From: Eutypa lata
Lineage: Eukaryota; Ascomycota; Sordariomycetes; Xylariales; Diatrypaceae
NCBI GenBank assembly: GCA_022661535.1
Contig: JAKULF010000001.1
Location: 2,852,001-2,916,000 of the forward strand
Reading direction: 5' to 3'
Length of the DNA stretch: 64,000 nucleotides
This document shows, one piece after another, positions 4,765 to 36,000 of this stretch (positions within the stretch are counted from its first letter, which is position 1; the number at the start of each line of letters is the position of its first letter). The notes under the pieces were generated by a model. That model had not been told where the DNA came from. It made no database searches and saw only the letters and a list, made by a program, of their open reading frames with translations. The translations under genes and the position numbers were made by a program.

Positions 4765-5172
4765 TGTGAGGATTTTGAGGACAGAAATTGGACGTTTGTG
4801 GAGGAGGCTCTGAACTCTTATTTCGGCGACAATGTGGTAATCTTAGCTACTAAGTAATGCGAGTGGGATGAACAGACATGGATGAGATACTGCTTGCTGA
4901 CTTTGTGGATGAACCTTGGCAAGTGTAAAGCTTGTCACGATGTACTGAAGTCAAGGCTTGTATGAAGAGCGAGAGCTTTGTTTGGCTTATTGATACTTTC
5001 TTATGATGGTTCGCATCGGCTCTTTGGGGTATGCGTAGCAAATGTGCCTCGAATCTTACCTAATTATTAAGTGAGTATCCTGATCTGGCTCTAGATCTGT
5101 TACGTAATACCAAGCCTCTTTGATTTCCTCACCACTATCTTATGGTGGTGGTAAAAGCTATACATTGATATA
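4765..5172. other. Intergenic, no gene seen
   Basis: This separates the broken F-box-like gene from the left end of the RIP-degraded element. The sequence is of ordinary composition until the AT-rich island. A 63-codon reverse frame at 4850-5041 is not supported. Confidence 0.6.
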
Positions 5173-5212
5173 CCGCATGGCAGGCTGGCAAGTAACGCCA
5201 CCACTGCAACGC
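5173..5212 (+). repeat. Left terminal inverted repeat of the AT-rich element
   Basis: It starts CCGCATGGCAGGCTGG and pairs with 8182-8221 on the other strand. About the first 27 bases align well with mainly C/T and G/A differences, then similarity fades. Confidence 0.65.
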
Positions 5213-8181
5213 CGTGGCAACCAAATGATGGCCACCAAGCTTGCAACGTAACCCATATAGGATTTTTTTATATTACGTAACTTATAACGCAATCCATCGA
5301 AACTACCTTTAATGGCTACCGGTTATTATTAAAAGTAACTTAATAAGTTTTATTATTAATAAATATTATATATTTATATAATATTATTAATAAGTAATTA
5401 ATATTATCGTTATAAATATAACTTTAAAATAAAAAATCGTAAAAATAATTAAAAAAATTTTAATATTTTAAAAATTTAAAATTTAAATAAATTATAATTT
5501 ATTTATTTATTTATTATTTATATATATTAATAAATTAATAATTATTAATAAAATTTTTAATTATTTATTTTAATATTTTATTTATATTATTTTATTTTAT
5601 AATAACTTTAAATTTTAATATTAATAACGTTATTTTTAATAATTAAAAATTAAATATCGATTTTATATTAATTTTTAAATTTGAAATTTTTAACGATTTT
5701 ATTTATAAAACGCGTTTATTTATAAATTTTTTTAATTATTTTTATTCGTAAAAAATTAAATTTAATAAAGTTTAAAATTAAAAGTTTAAATATAATATAT
5801 TAAAAAATAATATTTAAATATAAATATATAAAATATATATTAAACGTAATTTATATTTAATTAATAAATTTAATTTTTATTTTATTTTTATTTTAAAAAA
5901 TTAAATTACGTATTTCTTTTCGAAAACTTTTTTAATTTTTAAATTTTATTAATTATTTTAAATTAAATTTTAAAAATTCGTAAAAATAAATAATTATAAA
6001 TATATTTATTAAAAGCTTTAATAAATAAAAATTTAAAAAGTTATTATTTATTTTAAATTATTAAAAAAAAAATTTATATTAAATTTTTAAATATTTAAAT
6101 TTTTATATTTAAAATTAAATTATTTATATATTTTATATTATAATTAATATTTTTATTATTAATTTTATTAATAAAAATAAAATTAATATTATTTAAATAT
6201 TAAAAATTTATTTTAATTTAATATATATTATTTTTAATAAATAATATTTAAATAATTATTATTTATTATATAATATTTATTATTTTTTTAAAATTTTAAA
6301 TAATTTTTTTATTAAAATCGTTTTAAATTTATTAAAGATTATTTTATATTATATAAATAAAAATATAAACGAAAAAATTATTTACATTATTAATTTTTTT
6401 AATATATTTTATAATAAAATTAATTATTTCGTTTTTAATAATATAATAATTAATAATATAATTATAAAATATATTAATAATATTTTAAAATTTAATAATA
6501 AATTTTAATATAATTATTATTTTAATTATATTTTTAATTTTATTATAAAAACGTTTTTATTTAATAAAAACGTAAAAGTATTTAAAATTAAAATTAATAA
6601 TTATAATATTATAAATAAAATTAAATATAAATTATAATTAAAAAAAAATAATTAATAAATTTTATAATATTATAATTTATATTTATTATTTTAATAAATT
6701 AATTAATAAATTATATTAAATATAAATTATTTAAAAAACGCTTTATATATAATTTTCTTTTTAAATTATTTAATATTATTATTAATAATAAAATATAATA
6801 ATTTTTTTAATATTATATAATTAAATATATAATTATTTTTCGTTTTATATTTTTATTATTTATTTAAAACTTTTAAAATAAATAAATTTACGAAAATATT
6901 TTAAAATTAAATTAATTAAAAAAAAACGTAAAAAAACTTATTATTTTTAAAAATAATTATTAATTAATAAATTATAATTAATACGTTTTAAATATTATAA
7001 TAAAAATTTTAATTTTATTTAAATACGTTATTAAAAAATTAAAAAAAAAAATTAACGTTATAAAATAAAAAAAATTTATTAATTTATATAATAATATTTA
7101 AAATATATTTTTTATTTTTAAATAATTATTAATAAAACTTAAAAATTAAAAATTAAAAATTAATAAATTTTTCGATTTATTTTATTTTTTTATTAATATT
7201 AATATAATTTAAATAAAATTAAATAAATATTATAATAAATTTAATAAAATATTCGTTTATTACGTTATTATTATATTATATTTTATATTTTAATAATAAT
7301 AATTTAATAAATTTTAATTAAATTACGATAATTAAATAAATAAAGCGAAAAATATAATTAAAAAAATTTAATATAACGAATATTATATAAAAAAATATTT
7401 TTAAAATTATATATATAATTATTTAATAAATTAAAAAAATATTATAATAATTTTAATAAATATTTTAACGAATAATAATAAAATTATATAATAATTATTA
7501 AATTATTTATTAATTCGAATAAATATATATTTAACGATAATTTCGATAAATATATTATATAATATAAAAACTTAAAACTTAACGATAATAACGTTACGAA
7601 TTTAATTTAATATTAAAAGAATAAAATATTTAAATATTTACGATTTATAAAAATAACTTTTAATTTTTTAACGATATAATTAATATTTATTAAATATAAA
7701 CGTTTATTTTTAATAATTAAAAAAATAATTATTAAACTTTAATTTCGTTTAAATATTATAATAATTAAAATATATTAAGTTTTTCGATTTTAATATAAAA
7801 TTAACTTAATTATAAACTTTAATCGTATATTTATATTTTAAATTAAAAAGAAAAAAATAATTATAATAACGAAAATAAACGACGATAAATTATATAATTA
7901 AATAATAACGTAAATTAATAATTTAATAAATATAATAAAAATTAATTTAAAAACGAAATTAAAATTTATAAAAGTAAATAATTAAAAAAAGTTAAAATAT
8001 TAAAAATTAAATTATGATATTACTTTATATTTTATTTATAATTTTATTTTAATTTATATTATACTTTAATAATTTATATAACGAGTGTAATTTATTATAT
8101 AACGTGGCTACTTTCGTTCATCGTAATCCATTAAATCGAGGGTGCTGGTGCATTATAAATAACGTAATCCATATGGATGGA

Positions 8182-8221
8182 TGGTGGAGTGGATTGCGTT
8201 ATTTACCAGCCTGCCGTATGG
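8182..8221 (-). repeat. Right terminal inverted repeat of the AT-rich element
   Basis: Read on the minus strand it starts CCATACGGCAGGCTGG and mirrors 5173-5212. TA follows immediately at 8222-8223, matching the TA before the left end. Confidence 0.65.
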
Positions 8222-8223
8222 TA

Positions 8224-20300: not shown

Positions 20301-23300
20301 TTGGAGATTGATTCCACCGTGATAGAAAGCCAGACAAGTGAGGAGTATCGCCACCTAGCCATATTAGAATGAGTACGTCGTTCTTTGGGAAGTAGAAAAA
20401 GAAAGGGGGAAAAAGATTGATTCTGAGAATAACAACATAATAGACAAGTGAAAAATATTGGGGAATACTAGATCAATCAACTTACATCGATATGTCCAAA
20501 TTCGGACTGCTCACTTGGAATGCCCTTGCAGTGAAAGGGGACAGCAACAGGATCCCTGGAAGGATGGATGCCGTACTGGACACCGTACCTTTTTTTCAAA
20601 GCCATAATTAATATGCGGTGCACTAATAACCCCCTGAGGAGGTAGACGATCTGGCGGAGATGTGGCTTATCTGGACAAAGGTTGCGGATGCGATCTACAC
20701 TGGCTGGTCGAATCTTGCTGCCTGACAAAAACTCCTTTATGGCGAGACGATCTCCTATGTCTAGCGACTCCATGGGAATAATACCACCATATCCTTGACA
20801 GATGTCGCGCTTGAGTCGGCTGATTAGTTCCTCTTCTACATCTGAACGGAGGAAGAAGACAAATGGAAAGCCACCCTGTTCTCGTCTGACTACTTCAATA
20901 GAGTGGAGAAAATTATATGCCAAATCGTGAAGATGCATATCCACCAAATGAAGAATCTGCTCAGCAACGAGCCAGCGGTGTGGGTGACCATCCACAGCCA
21001 TCTGGGAGCCTGAAGGACTGCAACATCAAGAGTTAGTTGTTTTCATCTCTAGATAGCTTGGTGATGACTTAGGAGCCCCAAGTCATTTTGGAGGTTACTT
21101 ACTAAATGAGTTGAGTCTTTACGGCAAGAGTGTGATCACTCTCGTCAAGGACGTCGCGGGCATGAGACTGGATCCAGTTTTGTACTCGAATCATCATACT
21201 AGCCTCGGGTATGCGGTTGTCTAACACACGCTGAATGCCACTTAACATGAATGATAGCTGGTGCTCGGGGAGAGTTAGAAGAATACCATGTTTTTTATGA
21301 ATATCACGGTGAAGCCTATGGAAGAGTTTGATGTTATCTTCCTTTGTCGGAGTCCTTCGTGAGAATGGCACATGGCTAATCTCTCTTCCGATAAGGCCTC
21401 CTAGGCGGGTATGAAGTAGCTGGGCTGTTTGCTGTAAGAGAGTCTTAGGTATTGAAACTCGCACAAGATTCTTTCCATCCGCCAAAATGCAAGCGACCAT
21501 TGGGATAATGCAAGACGTTTTACCTTGACCCATATTCAGTTGAAGTACACTGGATTCACCAGATTCTGGCGCAATGATTGCCAGCGCGACTTCGACCTGG
21601 GTCTTGCGAATGAGGAGATTCGATTCGATTTCCAGTAACAGCCAATCAGGGTATTCGTCTGGTCGCCAGTTGCTATGCCCTACATTACTCTGCTCTTCTT
21701 CTAGGCGGACAGTGTCTCTGGCTTTCAGGTACAGCGCAAGCCTGACCTGCCGTTGAAGCTCGGTGATTGTAAGCGCAGCTTGGATAATACTTTCTTTCAT
21801 CCCGCTACCGAAACTACAGTGAGACGTAGACCGTAGTTTCTCAAGTATACTTATGCGGGTAACAGATGGCCATAGATTCCCTCGCTTTAGCCATTCAACC
21901 TGCCGTTGCGATAGTGAATCACTCGGTCGACTCATTGCGTCTTTGATAGCATTGAATTGACTTTCGATATCTTGCTCAAGGTTATGTATGCTATGGTTAG
22001 CAGCGACCAATGATGACCGGTTTGGCAATGCTGATGGGTCACATTGCCTAAACGCAGCGAGGCTTTGTTGGAGTTCGGACGCATAACGCCGGTGAATGGC
22101 TGACTTTGAGCGGAGGAAAAGTTCAACAATTTGTCCGAGCTCTCTCATAGCATCTCTCGGTGAACTACTATGGAAGGTATTTTGTACGTGGGATTGAACA
22201 CGAGTAGAGCCAAAGCTCGAGCCACGAGTACCATTCCATGGGCTGGTTGTAAGGTTACCATGGGAGAAAGATGGCGTTGAGTCAGTGGTGTGGATAATCG
22301 GCATTCTAATCAAGTTGGAAGCAAGGTCAGGAAGTGCGTAATGAGCGGGTGGTTTAGAGAAACCCCTTTCTAACTGTACGAAGACAGGTGGCCGCAGGTG
22401 GACATCGGAATGTCGCTGTTTGAGAATATGCTGGAGTTCATCGAGATGAAGGCCAAATACGTGGTTGTGGTATAGCCTTTGAAATTCCGGGAACACCGTG
22501 TTATAAGCTGCCTCGGTGTCTATTAGTAAGGTGCCGCTCAAGTTTTCGATACTTGGGACCTCGCAGGGCCATTGCTCTAGCAAGAACTGCGCAAATGATT
22601 TACAGTCAGCGTCTGCTTGATGGTCGTGAGCTACCCGGGCTTGCCATAACTTCTTCCGATTTTTCCCTGTTGCAAACTCAGAAAGGGGAGGATCCTATTT
22701 GGAAAAGATAGTTAGCGAGCGAGCCTATACGTGATAAGAATTAATAGAAGCAGGAGCCTAGATGGCATTTTATATTCACGTGAAGGTACTAGTTGCTGGC
22801 ACGTTTATCATAGAAACCAACAGAATGGTCTCTGAGAGGACTAAAGGCAGAGATCGACTAACCTCGGGAGCCGGGATTTTGAAGTGGCTAATCAGTTTGA
22901 TTATTGGATCAAGTTGAGGCACTTGATGGGGGCGGAAACTAAGGTACGCCATTGCCTGTGGAAGTTCTCTGGAATGCAGTTCGTTGTATAAATAGATGGC
23001 CACCAAAGTTCGTATTAATGGCATGGTGGCATCGCCTCTGAAAGAAATGGTTCCAAGGAAGAACATGAGGCTATATGGGTTTTGCATATCTCGTACAGCC
23101 TGAACAAGTGGGCCCCAATTCTGACGCACATCAATGTCTAGACGATCACTCAATGTCACCTTGTCGAATGGCTGTATATAACCTTTTATCGACAGTGACT
23201 GAGAAAGCTGGACCGCAAGATCAGTCACAGTAGCCATCGACATTGGCTTCTCGCGTATGAGAGATATTACTTCGAACACGTTGGCGTACTTGGTGCTGGA

Positions 23301-26300
23301 CATACGTGGACGGTCTCGAGCTCCGTAGCTAAGATCACAGGGAGGTGGAAGTTGAAGTCCATCAGAACTATGCCGTCGGTGCAGTTGGTGGCGTAATAAA
23401 GCCCGTGTATTAAGGTTCCAACTCCCTGAAGCGGACAACGCGGGCGTCTCTTGTGGTGAAGGCGAAAAAGTGGATAGCCTAATAGACTGTCTGAGGATTC
23501 GATCAACGAGCATCTGGTACTCTTCCCGTTGCGTGCTGGATGGCAGGTCACTGTCCCAAAACTCCCTAGACATCAGCCTCATCTTTTTGGTAAAAACAAG
23601 TTAGTATCTAATTTGTCATCATGTCTTTTAAAGGCTCTATAACAGAAAGAAAAAGGAAATATATCAATGTGTTTTTAGTACTTACATCCGGAGGGTAGTA
23701 TTCTCGCTTAGGTGACAAACTAGCAATGGAATGAAGAGTCGTTGCAGCATATCCATCATGTGCCAGCGGAGCCCAAGGTTGGCAGATACCGGAAGACAAA
23801 ATACTTAAAGCCTCTTCTGCTCCAGTCCTGCCGGTTAGGGGGTCTGCTACTGGACCATGTGTGAGAGCATGGATGTGAACTTTTTTGTAGACCAAAGCGG
23901 GCTCAGCAGCACAGTCAATTCTCCCGAGAGTGGCATTAACCGAAAAACGAATGTAATGTGCTGTCGACTCCGCTAATGGTATGACTGTGACTTGAACGTG
24001 GCAGCCTCGCTTGATTGCTTTGATATCACCAAGTGGCACGAGAATGGAGCGTTGCGAGGGATCTTTCACGCTCCGACAAACAAGTTTGCTATCGAATCCG
24101 AACCACGTGCCTATGCGCTATTCATATCACATAATATTAGCACCTCCTATAATGTATGGCATTAGTGAAGACTTACTTGATCAGGGTCCAACTCAGAGAA
24201 AAGATGTGAGGATTGTAGCAGTCTTTCCTTGTTGACAAACCAGCGTAGTTGCATTCGAAGCAAATCGACAGTTAATGCATGCTGTTCGGGTTGGTAAACT
24301 GTCAAGTATCGCCGGGGTTCGAAATAAAGGAAAATTCTAGAAATTCGAGCAGACAGCGCACAGTACGGGTCTACAAGCCTTTCTTCTTCTCCTCGATGAG
24401 TAAAACGAGAGCATATAGAGGTGGCCATATTTAGCTTCCACTGATGTCGGTGCTCTTCCCAGACATTGTGGGCATTCTTACGAATATGAAGGATGCCAGT
24501 CTTAATATCCCTGTAAACGGTGAGCCCTATCTCAAGAGTTCCCTGGAAGCTAGACTTACAGCCAATGGATACATTCGTCCACTAAGTTGGCGGGGAGATC
24601 GAACAAGTTGGCACGATAAAATATGTGCCGTGGTATCAGTTCCAGAGTCTGAGGTCCCTTGGTGGCTCGAATAATCGTCGATCCATTATCATAGCCAATA
24701 TGAGTTGTATAGCCCCCTCTCTTGATAGTCAGTGCTAAACCAAATATTAGCTAGCACCTTCGGACTCTTTCTCGAAAACAAGGTTCTCACCATGCGACAT
24801 TCCTGGAACCCGTGATGGGTATTTTGTTAGGGTTTGAGCACCGAACAGTTCCGTGAGGATGAGTTCGCTCTGCGAATCGGTTGGAAGTCGCTATCGCTGT
24901 TAGTTAAAGTAAACAGGAGGGTATCTTGAACTCACTCCTAGTGGTTCTCCATCGACCAGGAGAATGCCATGAAGATAATTGTAACTCAAGACTTGGGGCA
25001 ATTCATCGTCATTATTGACATCATCTGCATCAATACGAATCCAACACTCCTCGTCGAACTCTATATCTCGTATCTGTTTCGATTCTGAAGCAGACCAATG
25101 ACTGTTCAGTGCAATGAGCATCCCTTCTTTGCCGTAGAGTTCTATGGCCTCCGAGATTCGACCTTGTAATTCGTGCATCATTCTAAGGTCACGTACGACA
25201 GAATTCCGTAGCGTGATTGGGAGTTCCTGAATATTCTTCGGAAGGCTGTCATGTGCTGTGACGGAACACTCAACAAATACTGCAAGTGCATCTTTGTCGA
25301 GGGAAAGCGAAGGCACCCGGAGGTAAGTGATGAAGGATCTTTTGCAGAGTAGGGCAGCCCAGAGCATGTAAGTCTGGCAACTTTGCGCAGACTTTGAGTC
25401 GTTTATTCTGTACATTTCCTGCTGCAACTTTCTGGTCCATTGTAAAGTAAAACTCCTTGCTTTGATCAAGATTTCAAGGGCCTGATTTGTTATGTTAGAC
25501 ATCTCATTGTAGCTTACCGTAAGTGTGACCACGCAAATCAGCAATGTCGTGACAATTTCCATCAGGTATGTTTCTCGCCAATTCGAGGAAATCCCGTCAA
25601 GTTTTTGATCGAGCTGGAATAATAAGGCTGAACAGAAGGAACGGTCCCGGAAAGCACCATGGATGGTACCAAGCAACTCATCAGTTTCATCGAATGGCCC
25701 CATTTGCAGCGCTAGGTGACTGAGCAGGTTGACTGCCGCCTCAGAAGCTAAGTTTAAGTTGGACGAACCAAGCTCTATCAGAATTGTGATCCAACGGCGG
25801 CGCTTACCGGACAGAAGAGACTGGAATGCCATGAACTCGTTGACGTTCAGCCCTTGTGGACAAGAGGATTGACTTGCAACAATTTCGTACGAGGATGGGC
25901 CATCAGTATCTACATTCGATGCCCGACTGTTGAGTAGAGGGAAAAAAGGAGACGACTTCGGAACCTCCAATTTGCAGTGATGGAGGAAGGAAGCACGTAT
26001 TCGCTTCCTGCCTGGCCAAGATTGACTTGATTTGTCGTAATATGCGAATTTGAGGCCGTTTGGTAGACAGACTTGATCCAAGTCGACAGGGAAGTCCTTC
26101 ATACTCCAATGCGTCATCAGAACTGTAACCGTTAGCGAAAACCATGATATATTGTGATGAAACAATTCTTACATGATTTGGTAGAAGAGGCCAAAGACAA
26201 TTGCCCAGTGATTCCAGAATAATGTTGCAATTCTGAATAGTCTTCTAAGCAAACCCGAGGCTCGATGGCAGTTTCTGGGTTGTTGATACCGAGACGATAG

Positions 26301-28415
26301 AGAATTGCCCAAGTGGCATCACGATAAGCCGCAAAAGCACGAGGGCAACACAACTCAAATACTACAACTTTGGCAAGAGTATCTGCTTCTGGGAGAGGTG
26401 ATTCAAAGACACGTATTCTGATTCGTGTGCGCCTTCGGGTCAGTTGGCATTTGAGACAGTGATCAACATCATGTGGTACATAAGAGTTATCGATGCTCGA
26501 AGTGTAGACACAGGTAGTCGTGTCGATTTCCCTCGTCAAAGCTTCGTATTCTGAGCTCAACTTCAGCCACTCGCGTTCTTTGTTCCGTCGTTCCTCATCA
26601 GCGGCTTCTTGTATATCCTTGAGCATATCAGCAAGGGCTTCTGCATCTGTGGATTCATTGAAGTATCTCTCCGCGAAGCATCCTTTGATGGGATCATCGA
26701 ACACAGTGACGTGCTTATCTTGACACATTTTCTCTCGACTTTGTAAGTATTTCTGGATTTTTCGAGCACGACCAATATCGGCTAGTGAAGAAAAGTGAAG
26801 CACCTCCATCAGGCGAGGAGAGAACACTGGATGAAAATCGGATAGAAGGGGAAACATAATGCATGCAGCCTGATCTAGCGCTACCCAGATTTCCATGACA
26901 AGAAGGATCATCAATGATTTCTGCTCCTTATTGTTGTCATAAGATGTGTTCACGGCCTCATTATACTCGAGAAGAATACGATGAAGCTTGAGACATCGTT
27001 GGGCAATATCTCCTTCGGAGATAGGTTCACTACATTCGAGAGAAATCTGATTCTCGATATCGAACAAGCCAAAAAGCCCTCGTGCAAGCTCATGAACATG
27101 CTGTTCAGAGGAATGGATAGTCGTGTTCGCGCTATAGTTCGGTCTCATATGGCGGGCTCCTCGAAAACGCATTTGCGCATCACGAATGTACTGGCGGCTT
27201 GCGATAAGACTTAGCCGTAGATCTTGTTGGGAAGCCCTTGGAGGAAGAGGCAGGATAACCTTTGTGGTTCCCAACTTTTCTTGCTCCCAGTCCTTTTCGA
27301 TTCTTGTTGTAGTTTTCTGTATTACCTTGTTGAATTGGGGCGACAAGGTGTTGAGTAATGGATCGACAGAAGCTTGTCTTTTATGAGTCAGCTCTGCACG
27401 ATCCCGATCTAGCTTGAAAAGTCGACGACATAGTTTCGCTTTCAGGAATTCCAGGTCTTCCAAGTTCACGACGTCTTGAATCTTGTTTAACAGAGTTGCA
27501 TGCACAAGGCACATGAAGGTTTTGTAATGTATCCGAGCAATTTCTCCATTTCCCAGCATCATTGCCAGATAGCGGGAAATAGACACACGAAAAACCAACC
27601 AGTATGGAAGTCGACGCCATGGTGCTTGTGCATTAGACCATAGTACTTCATCTCTAACTCTTTTCTGAAGTAGCGTAGGGGAAACACGGGTTCCATTCGC
27701 CTCTAGTATCGCGGCAAGTAGAGAGGTGACCAAAGATGGGTCAGCGGTCTCGCGATTCTCCCAAAGCTCTGCACCTGCTTTGATAGCGAATTCAGAGAGC
27801 TTCTTCGTCGACTCTACAGAAGCCTGTTCAAGGAACGCAGCGAGGCTTTCAATAAAAGCGGTATCACTAAGCATTGAGCATGGTAGGTGAACAGCAACGC
27901 CAGGGAAGGTCCAAGCGATGGTGCCCGCATTTGCTCCAACAACAGCCTCTCGCTTGGGTGAGGCCTCGAAGAATTCAAACAAGACTTTGTCAACAAGATG
28001 TGGTCTGTGGCTTGTTAGCTATAATCAATTGGAGGATAATTAGAAGGGAGAATGGGTATGCCTACTCCGTGGGCCTGTGGATGAGGATCCCGGCATTTTG
28101 TGTGGCTATGTGAAGGATGATGAGGTCGGAAGTTTGCATTTTCTTGAGGTATGATATCAATTGGGTTCTTTCTACGCGGCCACCGATGTTCAATGACTTG
28201 CATGATTCCAGAGTTCTTCGGAGCGAATCCCAGATCCGGTAGTACTCCCCTTCTTGGCAATCTCTCATGCCCTTGGCAGCAGATATGAGGTGGTCGACAA
28301 GGGCATGTTCAATGTCGTCAATTCCATACTCTTGTCTTTGAGGTAGTTTTGCTGGAAGGGCAATATGATTGAAGAGGCTTTGGAGAGTCTTCTTCTGGAA
28401 GGTCGAGGTCTCCAT
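17357..28415 (-). CDS. Giant DUF6606/DUF3638/DUF3645-type protein, putative ubiquitin-system ATPase-like
   Basis: Sixteen exons join in frame: 28415-28066, 28004-26173, 26122-24936, 24890-24791, 24734-24560, 24510-24177, 24117-23686, 23582-22863, 22694-21103, 21017-20486, 20354-19557, 19494-19401, 19354-19228, 19083-19005, 18858-18298 and 18247-17357. They total 9,804 nt, or 3,267 residues. The N-terminus (LFNHIALPAKLP) matches DUF6606. DUF3638 (about residue 2,000 on) has a Walker-A-like NMGQGKTSCIIPM near residue 2,100 and a DVLDESD acidic motif near 2,225. Later come KTQLIYPSGSQMAVDGHPHRW, GFSGTSD (about 2,550) and YLDEAHTRGTDL (about 2,685). The C-terminus is acidic (EEEEEEKDK) then basic. 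Databases group this architecture with OTU-type deubiquitinases, but I see no classical OTU Cys/His motif; the ATPase-like motifs are clearer. Exon 8 to 9 spans the longest intron (168 nt). All splice sites are GT-AG. The biochemical role is not established by sequence. Confidence 0.9.
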
Positions 28416-31951: not shown

Positions 31952-33408
31952 CAGCTCGCTGGAAGTTCTTTGCATGATTGGAAGGTCAGGGCCTTAGCAC
32001 ATTGCGATGCTGGTGATAGCCACACAGCGTAAGCACCGCATGCGTGCCTTCTTGTTTCGTCTTGCTTCCTTGCTTTGGTGTCATGGTAGAAATTAGTCAA
32101 AGGTGTGTCAAGAAAAGCCAACTATCAGGTTGTACTGTACTGTGGTATACTGAACAGAAAGAAGGCATATACTTTGCCTGGCTCGAACATCATGAGATAA
32201 TAGAGTAAAACGAGCTCCTTTAGAGATAAAAAATGAGTAGAAATTGATACGAGGTCAGTGTGACGGAAGAGGGTATCACGTGATCAGGGGATAGCAGTAT
32301 GCGAAGTATTAATCTATAAATATTCTATCTGTAGTGATGACACATACACACAACTATAAGTTATATTTCCGCACAACTTACACTTTAACCTCTCCACTCA
32401 CGTTGATCCTATGATCTATTAAGATGTACCCCCTCAATCTACCATGCCAAAAGACCTCCTAGCTATGAAGTCAAGTGGCTTTCACGATGACTCGCGAGCT
32501 CTTCCACAGACGGATTGTATGAGAAAGAAACGTATAACGCGCGTTATTCCGACTCTGCGGGTTTCCGATCCTTATCGCTGATTGGGTGACTTTGCTATAG
32601 CCAAGAAAAGCCATCATGCTTGCCTACCCAGGTAGTCTAGCTTGCTCGGATCAACGGTTTCCCAGTACGGCGTCGGGTTGCCCTGGATCTCTCTTTCCAA
32701 TTGCGGATGAAGTTACATCATTGGCTATACATACGGGTTCTTATCAATCAATCTGTTGTCGCGAGGAGCCGACAATTGCCAATGCGGGGATTGCGATAAG
32801 ATCCTAGAGTAGCTAATAACTTCAACATACATATTACAAACCACAGGTCTTAGACCGGCATTTCACACGATGTAGGGAGATTGGCGCACATTTCCGGGAG
32901 CCCACTGGTGTACTCGGCTGTCTTTTCCTACTCCCGTCCCGACCCAATTTTTACAATATCACCAGCCAGCAGCCGAGTAACGGTTCACTTCTTCAAGTGT
33001 TTCCCCGCTCATCGGGAGCGGGTCCAGCGCCGAGCAAGACCAATCTTCCGGCCAAGACTCTACTTCAATGCTACAGTCGCGTAGACCGCATTCCTTGCCG
33101 ATAACGTTCGCGTCTTTGGGGGTTCAATACCATGACTAGAAAGTGTGACATATTAATCTTTACCCTCGTTATCAGCGACACGATGGGACAGGGTCGTGAT
33201 CTAAGCGACTCACCCGACGGGTATATATCCGGTCTATATCTTCCCCCATGGTTGACACCAGAGAGAAAAGGTATAATGCGTATCCGTGGGTAATAGCGTA
33301 CTTCTAAATCCGGTCTTTGCCATCCGAACTCCTGTGAAGCCTCCAGCTCTATCACCGAGATGGCGATATACGGGTACATCCTTGCGCTGCTAGCCTTTGC
33401 TCTTGTGT

Positions 33409-33416
33409 CTCCAACT
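33409..33416 (+). repeat. Left 8-bp target-site duplication
   Basis: CTCCAACT directly precedes the element and is identical to 33878-33885. Confidence 0.9.
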
Positions 33417-33877
33417 TAAGGGTAGGAAAAGCCCGCCCACGGCAAAATACCCACGGACCCATGGATACCCGTGGGCTTTTTTTTTAACTTACGGATAGCT
33501 TACGGGCTTTTTTTAAAATGCTAAGAAACCTACGGGTAACCCACGGGTATTTTCTTTTTACCCACGGGTACCCATAAATTAAAATCTTTTTATAAAAGAT
33601 TTTTTAAAAAAATTAAAAAAATTATTTTTATATAATATATAATATAATAATTAATATTATATAAAATTTTTTTTTAAAAAAATAAAATAATCTTAAAATA
33701 ATCGTTACGGGTTAATAATAAGTTTTTTAAAATTACTTATAAGTAACCCGTAAATTAAAAAAAAAAGTCGTAGGTTACCCGTAGGCTACCCATGAAAAAT
33801 CGTGGGTACCCGTGGGCTACCCATAAAAACGCGTGGGCTTTCGTGGGTTACCCACGGGTACCCATTCCCGACCCTTA
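33417..33877. mobile_element. hAT-type MITE (461 bp) in the amidase signal exon
   Basis: The element is bounded by an exact 8-bp direct repeat (CTCCAACT), the duplication length of hAT transposons. Ends are inverted: left TAAGGGTAGGAAA, right (reverse-complemented) TAAGGGTCGGGAA. Subterminal regions carry many ACCCACGGGTACCC-like and TACGGGTAACCC-like blocks in both orientations, as in hAT ends. The central 130 bp are A/T. There is no coding capacity, so movement would need a transposase in trans. Confidence 0.9.
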
Positions 33878-33885
33878 CTCCAACT
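33878..33885 (+). repeat. Right 8-bp target-site duplication
   Basis: CTCCAACT follows the element directly and continues into CTCGGAGCG, the rest of the amidase signal exon. Confidence 0.9.
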
Positions 33886-36000
33886 CTCGGAGCGCCGCCA
33901 CCGGTAAGACATCAAGCCTACACCATATTCCCCTGATAGTAAACTAATACCTAGCGTATCATACAGTCTCTATCTATCGTTGAAGCTAGCATTGAGGACC
34001 TGCAGGAAGCTCTGAGTTCCGGCCAGATCAACTCAGTCCAGTTGCTTGCCAAGCACCTTCATCGGGTTGCACAGTACGATCGTCGAGGTGTTCGACTCAA
34101 TGCCATCCCCGTGATCAACCCTTCTATGTTCGAGGATGCGCAAGCCTCCGATGACTACCGAGCGAGCAACAACGGCAGCATTAGGTCTCTGCTGGAGGGC
34201 ATCCCGTTCACTGTCAAAGACAGCTATATGTTAACCGGTCTACCGGTGGCCGCTGGCTCTCCCGCTTTCGTAAACTTGACGGCATCACATGATGCATTTA
34301 CCGTCGGACAGCTTCGCAAGAGCGGGGCAATTGCTCTCGGAAAGACCATCATGCCTCCTATGGCGAATGGAGGTATGCAACGGGGTGTCTATGGGAGAGC
34401 AGACAGTCCTTACAATAGGGATTATCTGACCGCAGCTATGGGTTCCGGTTCATCAAACGGCTGTGGAACCTCCACTGCGGCTAGCATGGCTGTGTTCGGC
34501 ATGGCCGAGGAGACGGTCTCGTCGGGGCGATCCCCAGCTTCGAACAATGGACTCGTCGCTTATACTCCGTCACGAGGCGTTCTTTCAGTCCGTGGGAACT
34601 GGCCCCTCCAGCCAAGCGCAGATGTCGCCGTGCCACATGCCAGATCAGTCAAGGACATGATGGCTATTCTAGACGTCCTTGTGGTGAAAGATGAGGATAC
34701 GACTAGTGACTTCTGGAGAGGCCAACCGTTCATCACTCTTCCTGAAGTTGATACGGTACGCCCGGAGTCCTTCCTTACTCTTGCCGACCCCGATGCGCTC
34801 AAGGGGAAGCGCATCGGAGTACCGAAGATGTTTATTGGTGAAGATGATCCTGCTGCCGTACCTGTCTGGGTCCGCCCATCGGTTCGAGCACTATGGGACA
34901 GTGCACGCAAGACTCTAGAGTCTCTTGGTGCGATGGTAGAGGAGGTAGACTTCCCAGCTGTCACGAATTACGAAGTTACACCCACCAACATACAGGTCGA
35001 AACAGACTACCCCCTGCCAGGCTATTTCAACGGCAGCTCCGGCCCGGATGGGTTGACTGCGTACGCTTGGGACGATTTCTTGCAAATGGTCAACGATACC
35101 AGTGATGTTACCAGGCTCGGTGACGTCGATCCCGCGTTGATATTTCCGCAGATACCTGGGACGATTCCCGACCGGTACAGCAACCGTTTTGGCAACCGAT
35201 CCGCCAGCTACATTACGTATGTCGAGTATGGCAAGAATCGCAGCGGTTCCATCTACGATCTGCCAGACCTTGGCCTTTACCTGCAGGAGCTCGAGGACCG
35301 CCGCAAGCGGGATCTCGAGCAGTGGATGGACGATAAGTCACTAGACTTAGTTGTGTGGCCCGCTGCAGGCGACGTCGGCTTCGAAGATGTCGAGATCAAC
35401 CCGGAGTCCGCGGAGCTCACATGGCGCAATGGTGTCGCTCGGTCTATGGGCAACGGCGCGATCCGACAGCTCGGAGTGCCAACCGTCAGCGTTAGCATCG
35501 GCCCGATGAGTGATAAGAAGATGCCGATGAGCTTAACTTTCGCCTCGAAGGCATACGATGATAGCTCTCTATTGAGCTACGCTTATGCCTTTGAAACTGC
35601 CCGCAAAGGCCGTTTTGCGCCTCCGCGAACTCCCGAATTAGCTACTGATATTATCTCCATGAATGGTTGCAAGAGTCCAGTTTTGGGCAAGCAAGCTCCC
35701 AAGTTAGAAGTGGCGGCTAAGAGAATTGATGCGTCTATGTTATCGATCTCCGGAAGCGTCATCGTCGATGGCGGCAGTAAAGATACGGTTGTAGTCGAGA
35801 TATTCGTGGACGGCGTTCCTATTGAGTCTAGAATATATTACAACAACTCTGTATGGAGCATCACAACTGACTCCATTCTGCCACCGTTGGTACAATCTCG
35901 CTTTGGCGAGATTAATGTACCCGATGCGAGCTTAGCAATGGTGGTTGTGGTAGCTACAGCACCAAATGGACGGTCCGCCGGCAAGCTCGTCTTTGCTTGA

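What the first reader, a model, noticed from the sequence alone, without database searches (positions are those of the whole stretch)
33360..33966. hAT-type MITE inserted in the signal-peptide exon of a secreted amidase
A 461-bp element with 13-bp inverted ends (TAAGGGT-GG-AA) is flanked by an exact 8-bp duplication, CTCCAACT. The bases left of it encode ATG plus a 19-residue secretory signal. The element's first codon in that frame is TAA. The bases right of the second duplication continue the signal exon and end at a GTAAGA donor. The 63-nt intron then leads, in the same phase, into an undamaged 677-codon amidase body. This is a legible transposition that should remove secretion of an otherwise intact enzyme. 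It may instead create a cytosolic form if transcription starts inside or after the element. The undecayed body suggests the insertion is recent, possibly strain-specific.
Basis: partly seen in the sequence, partly recalled or inferred. Interest (0 to 1): 0.85.

Follow-up and report, generated by a model that had tools for sequence, protein, structure and literature searches.

The report
Jumping DNA interrupts secreted amidase gene
In the genome of a grapevine-dieback fungus (Eutypa lata), a 461-base non-coding jumping element sits inside the short first exon of a predicted secreted enzyme, putting a stop codon right after its export signal while the rest of the gene is still intact; this is a clear but ordinary kind of gene interruption.

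Summary
A 461-bp element (33417-33877) with 13-bp inverted ends (11 of 13 matching) lies between two exact copies of CTCCAACT, after codon 19 of a leader exon; its first codon in that frame is TAA. The exon remainder, a 63-nt intron and a 677-codon amidase body are undamaged. Two more full-length copies (93%, 90%) and seven other elements with the same ends (120 bp to 16 kb) all have flanking 8-mers matching in 6-8 of 8 positions. It is a real transposition product, best called a hAT-like MITE related to an ~8-kb family now at 6-8% GC. No readable hAT transposase was found, so membership rests on ends and duplications. The species is Eutypa lata by the neighbouring NOP9 protein. Likely effect: loss of the secreted enzyme. 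The proposed cytosolic form is weak: the element brings an out-of-frame ATG, and the first amidase-frame ATG is residue 54 of the body. Whether the insertion is recent or strain-specific could not be tested. New member of a known kind.

The parts
33360..33416 (+). Left part of exon 1: 19 codons including the ATG, hydrophobic, signal-peptide-like (MAIYGYILALLAFALVSPT)
   Evidence: best 9-residue hydropathy window 3.1
33409..33416 (.). Target site duplication, left copy CTCCAACT
33417..33877 (+). 461-bp hAT-like MITE, 33% GC, imperfect 13-bp inverted ends, subterminal ACGGGTACCC-type repeats, AT-rich core
33417..33429 (+). Left terminal inverted repeat TAAGGGTAGGAAA; its first codon in the exon frame is TAA
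33865..33877 (-). Right terminal inverted repeat, TAAGGGTCGGGAA on the minus strand
33792..33794 (+). ATG inside the element, out of the amidase frame (51-residue frame unspliced, 42 if the 63-nt intron is removed)
33878..33885 (.). Target site duplication, right copy CTCCAACT
33886..33903 (+). Rest of exon 1 (LGAPPP)
33904..33966 (+). Intron, 63 nt, GTAAGA donor, CTAATAC branch-like, CAG acceptor (predicted, no transcript seen)
33967..36000 (+). Exon 2: open 677-residue amidase-signature body and stop
34126..34128 (+). First ATG in the amidase frame downstream of the element (residue 54 of the body)

Best explanation
A short non-autonomous hAT-like element (MITE), related by its ends to an ~8-kb family, inserted into exon 1 of a predicted secreted amidase-signature gene of Eutypa lata and duplicated 8 bp of target (shown: anatomy, duplications, sister copies). 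It was presumably moved in trans by that family's transposase (inferred). Translation from the native ATG now stops after 19 residues, at the element's first codon (shown in sequence), so the allele makes no secreted amidase (inferred, likely). The body is still open because the loss is young or because nothing has yet hit it (inferred). The long partners look destroyed by near-saturating C-to-T mutation, so the copy is probably stuck (inferred).
For: Exact 8-bp duplication, paired ends, TAA at the junction. Two more full-length copies with their own 8-mers, GCATATAT/GCATATAT and AGGTATAG/AGGTGTAG. Same ends on five 7.9-8.6 kb elements, one of 16 kb and one of 120 bp, each flanked by like 8-mers; up to 113 bp of the MITE's left end and up to about 190 bp of its right end align with the ends of the long elements. 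Coding sense on both sides of the insert is in one frame, into an intron with good signals and a body with Pfam Amidase E 3.4e-47. Among the first fifteen homologues, all ten that have an M-started extension of 14 or more residues carry a hydrophobic leader.
Against: No transcript data. No empty allele seen. No readable hAT transposase found. In the 120 listed homologues, 100 cover the body's start, 36 of these have an M-started extension of 14 or more residues, and 22 of the 36 are hydrophobic (a cruder regular-expression count gave 17 of 31), so secretion is not universal in the wider family, and no signal-peptide predictor was at hand.
Confidence: 0.82

Rival explanations
1. The allele still makes a cytosolic enzyme: transcription or scanning reaches the ATG at 34126 and yields a protein lacking the leader and the first 53 residues of the body.
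For: A 624-residue frame opens at 34126 and keeps the conserved blocks from residue 55 on. A database ORF of a near-identical protein starts there (P0001), but an intron-blind gene caller would report just that.
Against: ATGs at 33360, 33461, 33518, 33792 and 34100 come first on a transcript from the native promoter, and 33792 and 34100 on one starting late in the element. The protein would lose residues 30-53, where the Pfam match begins.
Confidence: 0.1
2. The element has been absorbed into an intron: a cryptic donor GTGTCT at 33405 joined to the native acceptor at 33966 would remove the element, both duplications and the exon tail in frame, leaving the leader core MAIYGYILALLAFAL followed by SLSIVEAS.
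For: Of the three GT dinucleotides between the start codon and the TAA, it is the only one in phase with the native acceptor. Worked out by hand, other YAG sites would also keep frame (33955 with this donor; 33990 with the other two GTs). The element is AT-rich like an intron (33% GC).
Against: The donor is weak (no G at +5; consensus recalled); the intron would be 562 nt against 63 nt; the strong donor GTAAGA at 33904 remains.
Confidence: 0.05
3. 33360-33416 is not the gene's first exon; the amidase starts elsewhere and the element lies in an untranslated or upstream region.
For: 64 of the 100 listed homologues that cover the body's start lack an M-started extension of 14 or more residues. 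Two same-genome paralogues (49% and 47%) have short, non-hydrophobic N-termini as far as their open frames show.
Against: The two sides of the insert share one frame, lead to an intron with good signals in the right phase, and give a leader like those of the closest homologues.
Confidence: 0.06
4. On age alone (compatible with the best explanation): the insertion is old and fixed in the species rather than recent.
For: The three full-length copies differ by 7-10%. The only near-identical database protein (P0001, source 'lgn', unnamed, 22 member sequences) lacks the leader, and no named Eutypa lata amidase with it is among the 120 listed.
Against: Exact duplication; undamaged body and splice signals. 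Differences between copies are mostly transitions (29 of 32, 38 of 45, 39 of 45 substitutions), as RIP would give quickly, so they do not date the insertion.
Confidence: 0.4

Closest known systems
hAT elements of fungi (such as Tfo, Hornet, Drifter and the RLT elements tabulated for Fusarium poae) and hAT-derived MITEs
   Same: 8-bp target duplications, short inverted ends starting TAAGG, subterminal repeats, short non-coding copies sharing ends with long ones (superfamily traits recalled)
   Different: The long partners here are 7.9-8.6 kb, whereas hAT-like elements tabulated for F. poae are 2.5-4.2 kb (PMC4994206, passages seen); their interiors are 5-8% GC and unreadable
Tse8 (PDB 6te4) and peptide amidases (1m21): amidase-signature enzymes
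   Same: Body aligns with Tse8 over residues 3-560 at E 5.5e-161; K84, S162 and S186 lie in invariant columns of close homologues
   Different: Fungal protein has a predicted leader and about 115 residues beyond the matched part; substrate unknown
Transposon-interrupted genes of plant-pathogenic fungi
   Same: A transposon insertion breaks an otherwise intact gene (general knowledge, recalled)
   Different: Here the element lies within the leader exon and leaves body and splice signals whole

Membership tests
hAT superfamily (non-autonomous member) | 8-bp target site duplication | tested here: met
   10 of 10 elements with two readable ends (10 of 20 places looked at), 6-8 of 8 positions matching, 4 exact
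hAT superfamily (non-autonomous member) | Short inverted ends with the YARNG start (consensus recalled) | tested here: met
   TAAGGGTAGGAAA / TAAGGGTCGGGAA
hAT superfamily (non-autonomous member) | Autonomous partner encoding a hAT transposase | tested here: inconclusive
   PF05699 no match at E 0.001, PF04937 none at E 10, PF14372 one sub-threshold match (E 0.4) in an ORF that reads as MutS-like by eye; control genomes silent too. Six long partners: longest stop-to-stop frame 119 residues; no ORF of 120 aa in the two listed
MITE | Short, non-coding, inverted ends, shares ends with longer elements | tested here: met
   461 bp; ends align with 8-kb elements
MITE | High copy number | tested here: not met
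   3 full-length copies; 128 mostly partial matches with 40 of 126 candidates scored, so a lower bound
Amidase signature enzymes (PF01425) | Profile match above the curated cut-off | tested here: met
   162 bits against 27
Amidase signature enzymes (PF01425) | Lys / Ser / Ser catalytic residues (triad recalled) | tested here: met
   K84, S162, S186 in columns invariant over 9 sequences; assignment of the triad to these positions is mine
Secreted protein | Cleavable N-terminal signal | tested here: inconclusive
   Hydrophobic leader by hydropathy and by homologues only

The most novel reading that the evidence does not exclude
The MITE has been turned into part of an intron: splicing from a cryptic donor at 33405 to the native acceptor at 33966 removes element, both duplications and exon tail in frame, so the insertion allele still makes, at low or regulated level, a secreted amidase with a shortened leader; splicing efficiency would then act as an on-off switch for a secreted Tse8-like enzyme.
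Probability: 0.05. Interest if true: 0.5.

Novelty: new member of a known kind. Interest (0 to 1): 0.25.

Why it matters
It is a legible natural interruption of an export signal, with the enzyme body untouched, in a species for which reads and assemblies of forty isolates are said to be public (PMC9007359; abstract and passages seen), so presence, absence and expression of the alleles could be scored directly. It also exposes a transposon family in which short copies survive while the ~8-kb partners have been driven to 6-8% GC.

Tried and rejected
P0001 (100% in the table, two differing residues seen by eye) is probably from the same or a very close fungus, but begins at the first in-frame ATG of exon 2, as an intron-blind gene caller would give, so it says nothing about exon 1.

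Species by the amidase: misleading. Its best named hits are Nectriaceae (Ilyonectria 74%), which first made me think of that family; NOP9 shows Eutypa lata. A tree of 46 rows (the window plus 45 of the 120 listed hits, my choice; P0001 left out) put the amidase on an open fork of five branches, with Dothidotthia, Phaeoacremonium, a Nectriaceae group and a mixed Fusarium / Aspergillus / Colletotrichum group, so a horizontal origin is neither shown nor excluded.

hAT transposase: three Pfam profiles gave nothing usable. As a check of power, PF03184 (pogo-type, another family) gave 4 matches in the same genome, one without inner stops, so transposases of another kind are detectable. Rfam: 0 matches in the window. 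Papers: Tse8 with fungal and amidase gave 2 papers; the one I opened holds the term only in its reference list. hAT/MITE/RIP in fungi gave 15, one opened for passages. RIP with CpG, AT-rich, dinucleotide and saturation gave 0. One search gave 278 (12 listed) and one search gave 425 (15 listed); I opened PMC9007359 (abstract and passages) and PMC7882544 (passages; it holds neither Eutypa nor CpG). MITE with signal peptide and insertion terms gave 1 (not opened). hAT with Eutypa or Diatrypaceae gave 2, neither on this family by title (listing only).

Full report
What is there. The window holds an ATG at 33360, 19 codons (ATG included) of a hydrophobic leader ending ...VSPT, and then a 461-bp element (33417-33877) between two exact copies of CTCCAACT. 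The element's ends are TAAGGGTAGGAAA and, on the other strand, TAAGGGTCGGGAA. In the leader's frame its first codon is TAA. After the second duplication come 18 bases (LGAPPP), a donor GTAAGA, a 63-nt intron with CTAATAC and CAG, and an open body of 677 codons ending at 36000.

Is it a transposon? Yes. The same genome (54.5 Mb, 29 contigs) has two more full-length copies, 93% and 90% identical. I searched 28 loci, standing for 20 distinct places, for the ends (up to 2 substitutions). Ten places show both ends: three MITEs of 460-462 bp, five elements of 7,865-8,586 bp, one of 16,111 bp and one of 120 bp; nine show one end and one none, most of them with little flank fetched. All ten two-ended elements have flanking 8-mers matching in 6 to 8 of 8 positions, four exactly; chance for 6 or more is 0.0042 per pair. 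Six of the seven mismatched positions are C/T or G/A. The end pattern alone is only modestly enriched (33 against 20 in the reversed control). Up to 113 bp of the MITE's left end and up to about 190 bp of its right end align with the ends of the long elements, so it is best read as an internal-deletion derivative of that family.

Which kind? Eight-base duplications and ends starting TAAGG fit the hAT superfamily (end consensus recalled). A transposase could not be tested: the six long partners are 5.8-8.4% GC over their whole length, their longest stop-to-stop frame is 119 residues, and three profile searches found nothing usable, with silent controls; a pogo-type profile did find matches in the same genome. 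I call it hAT-like. Hat-like elements tabulated for Fusarium poae are 2.5-4.2 kb (PMC4994206, passages), so partners of ~8 kb are long.

The gene. The body matches Pfam Amidase at 162 bits. Its closest relative of solved structure by sequence is Tse8 (E 5.5e-161, residues 3-560), a bacterial type VI secretion toxin according to a reference title seen. Of the 120 listed homologues, 100 cover the body's start, 36 of these have an M-started extension of at least 14 residues, and 22 of the 36 are hydrophobic; all ten such extensions among the first fifteen hits are hydrophobic. The two closest paralogues in the genome (49 and 47%) have short, non-hydrophobic N-termini as far as their open frames show. 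So secretion is likely for this gene and its nearest relatives, not for the whole family.

The species. NOP9 at 42513-44696 matches the Eutypa lata UCREL1 protein at all 725 of its residues, three residues of an E run being extra in the window. Among the named hits of the 120 listed, the amidase has no close Xylariales relative; Microdochium (order recalled) appears at 51%. Its tree position is unresolved.

What it does. Translation from the native start ends after 19 residues. No amidase-frame ATG lies between the element's last in-frame stop (33793) and the exon; an out-of-frame ATG lies at 33792; the first amidase-frame ATG is 34126, residue 54 of the body. A cytosolic form would therefore be N-terminally cut and reached only past decoy ATGs. 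One cryptic donor, GTGTCT at 33405, is in phase with the native acceptor at 33966 and would remove the element in frame; it is weak, so I give it 5%. No transcript was seen for any of these readings.

Age. The three full-length copies differ mostly by transitions (29 of 32, 38 of 45 and 39 of 45 substitutions), as RIP would produce, so divergence does not date the insertion. The exact duplication and undamaged body fit a young event, but with no second isolate's DNA at hand this is not tested.

Verdict. A clean, real insertion and probable loss of a secreted enzyme; a new member of a known kind. Interest 0.25.

Noticed in passing
window 5331-8090: A 2.76-kb stretch of 5% GC (down to 1% in one 250-bp step) in which 49 of 69 cytosines are in CpG and only 1 in CpA; CpG observed/expected is 29. 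It looks like C-to-T mutation near saturation at CpA, CpC and CpT with CpG spared.
   Followed up: partly
window about 5172-8222: The same AT-rich stretch is bounded by inverted GGCAGGCTGG... ends (near 5179 and 8215, read by eye) with possible TA duplications, as of a Tc1/mariner-like element of about 3 kb.
   Followed up: no
L009-L015 (G000 C7, C11, C9 twice, C12, C5): Family of 7.9-8.6 kb elements (one 16 kb) sharing the MITE's ends, 5.8-8.4% GC, CpG observed/expected 13-18 over the whole element; two to three times as long as most hAT-like elements tabulated for F. poae.
   Followed up: partly
L027, C1:64090-64209: A 120-bp miniature with both ends of the family and a 7-of-8 duplication.
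   Followed up: no
window 33967-36000: Fungal amidases with hydrophobic leaders are close sequence relatives of the bacterial type VI effector Tse8; what the fungal ones act on is unknown.
   Followed up: partly
window 21102-27982, minus strand: Separate ORFs on one strand, one matching DUF6606 and one DUF3638, a third without a match; may be one large gene with introns or a broken one.
   Followed up: no
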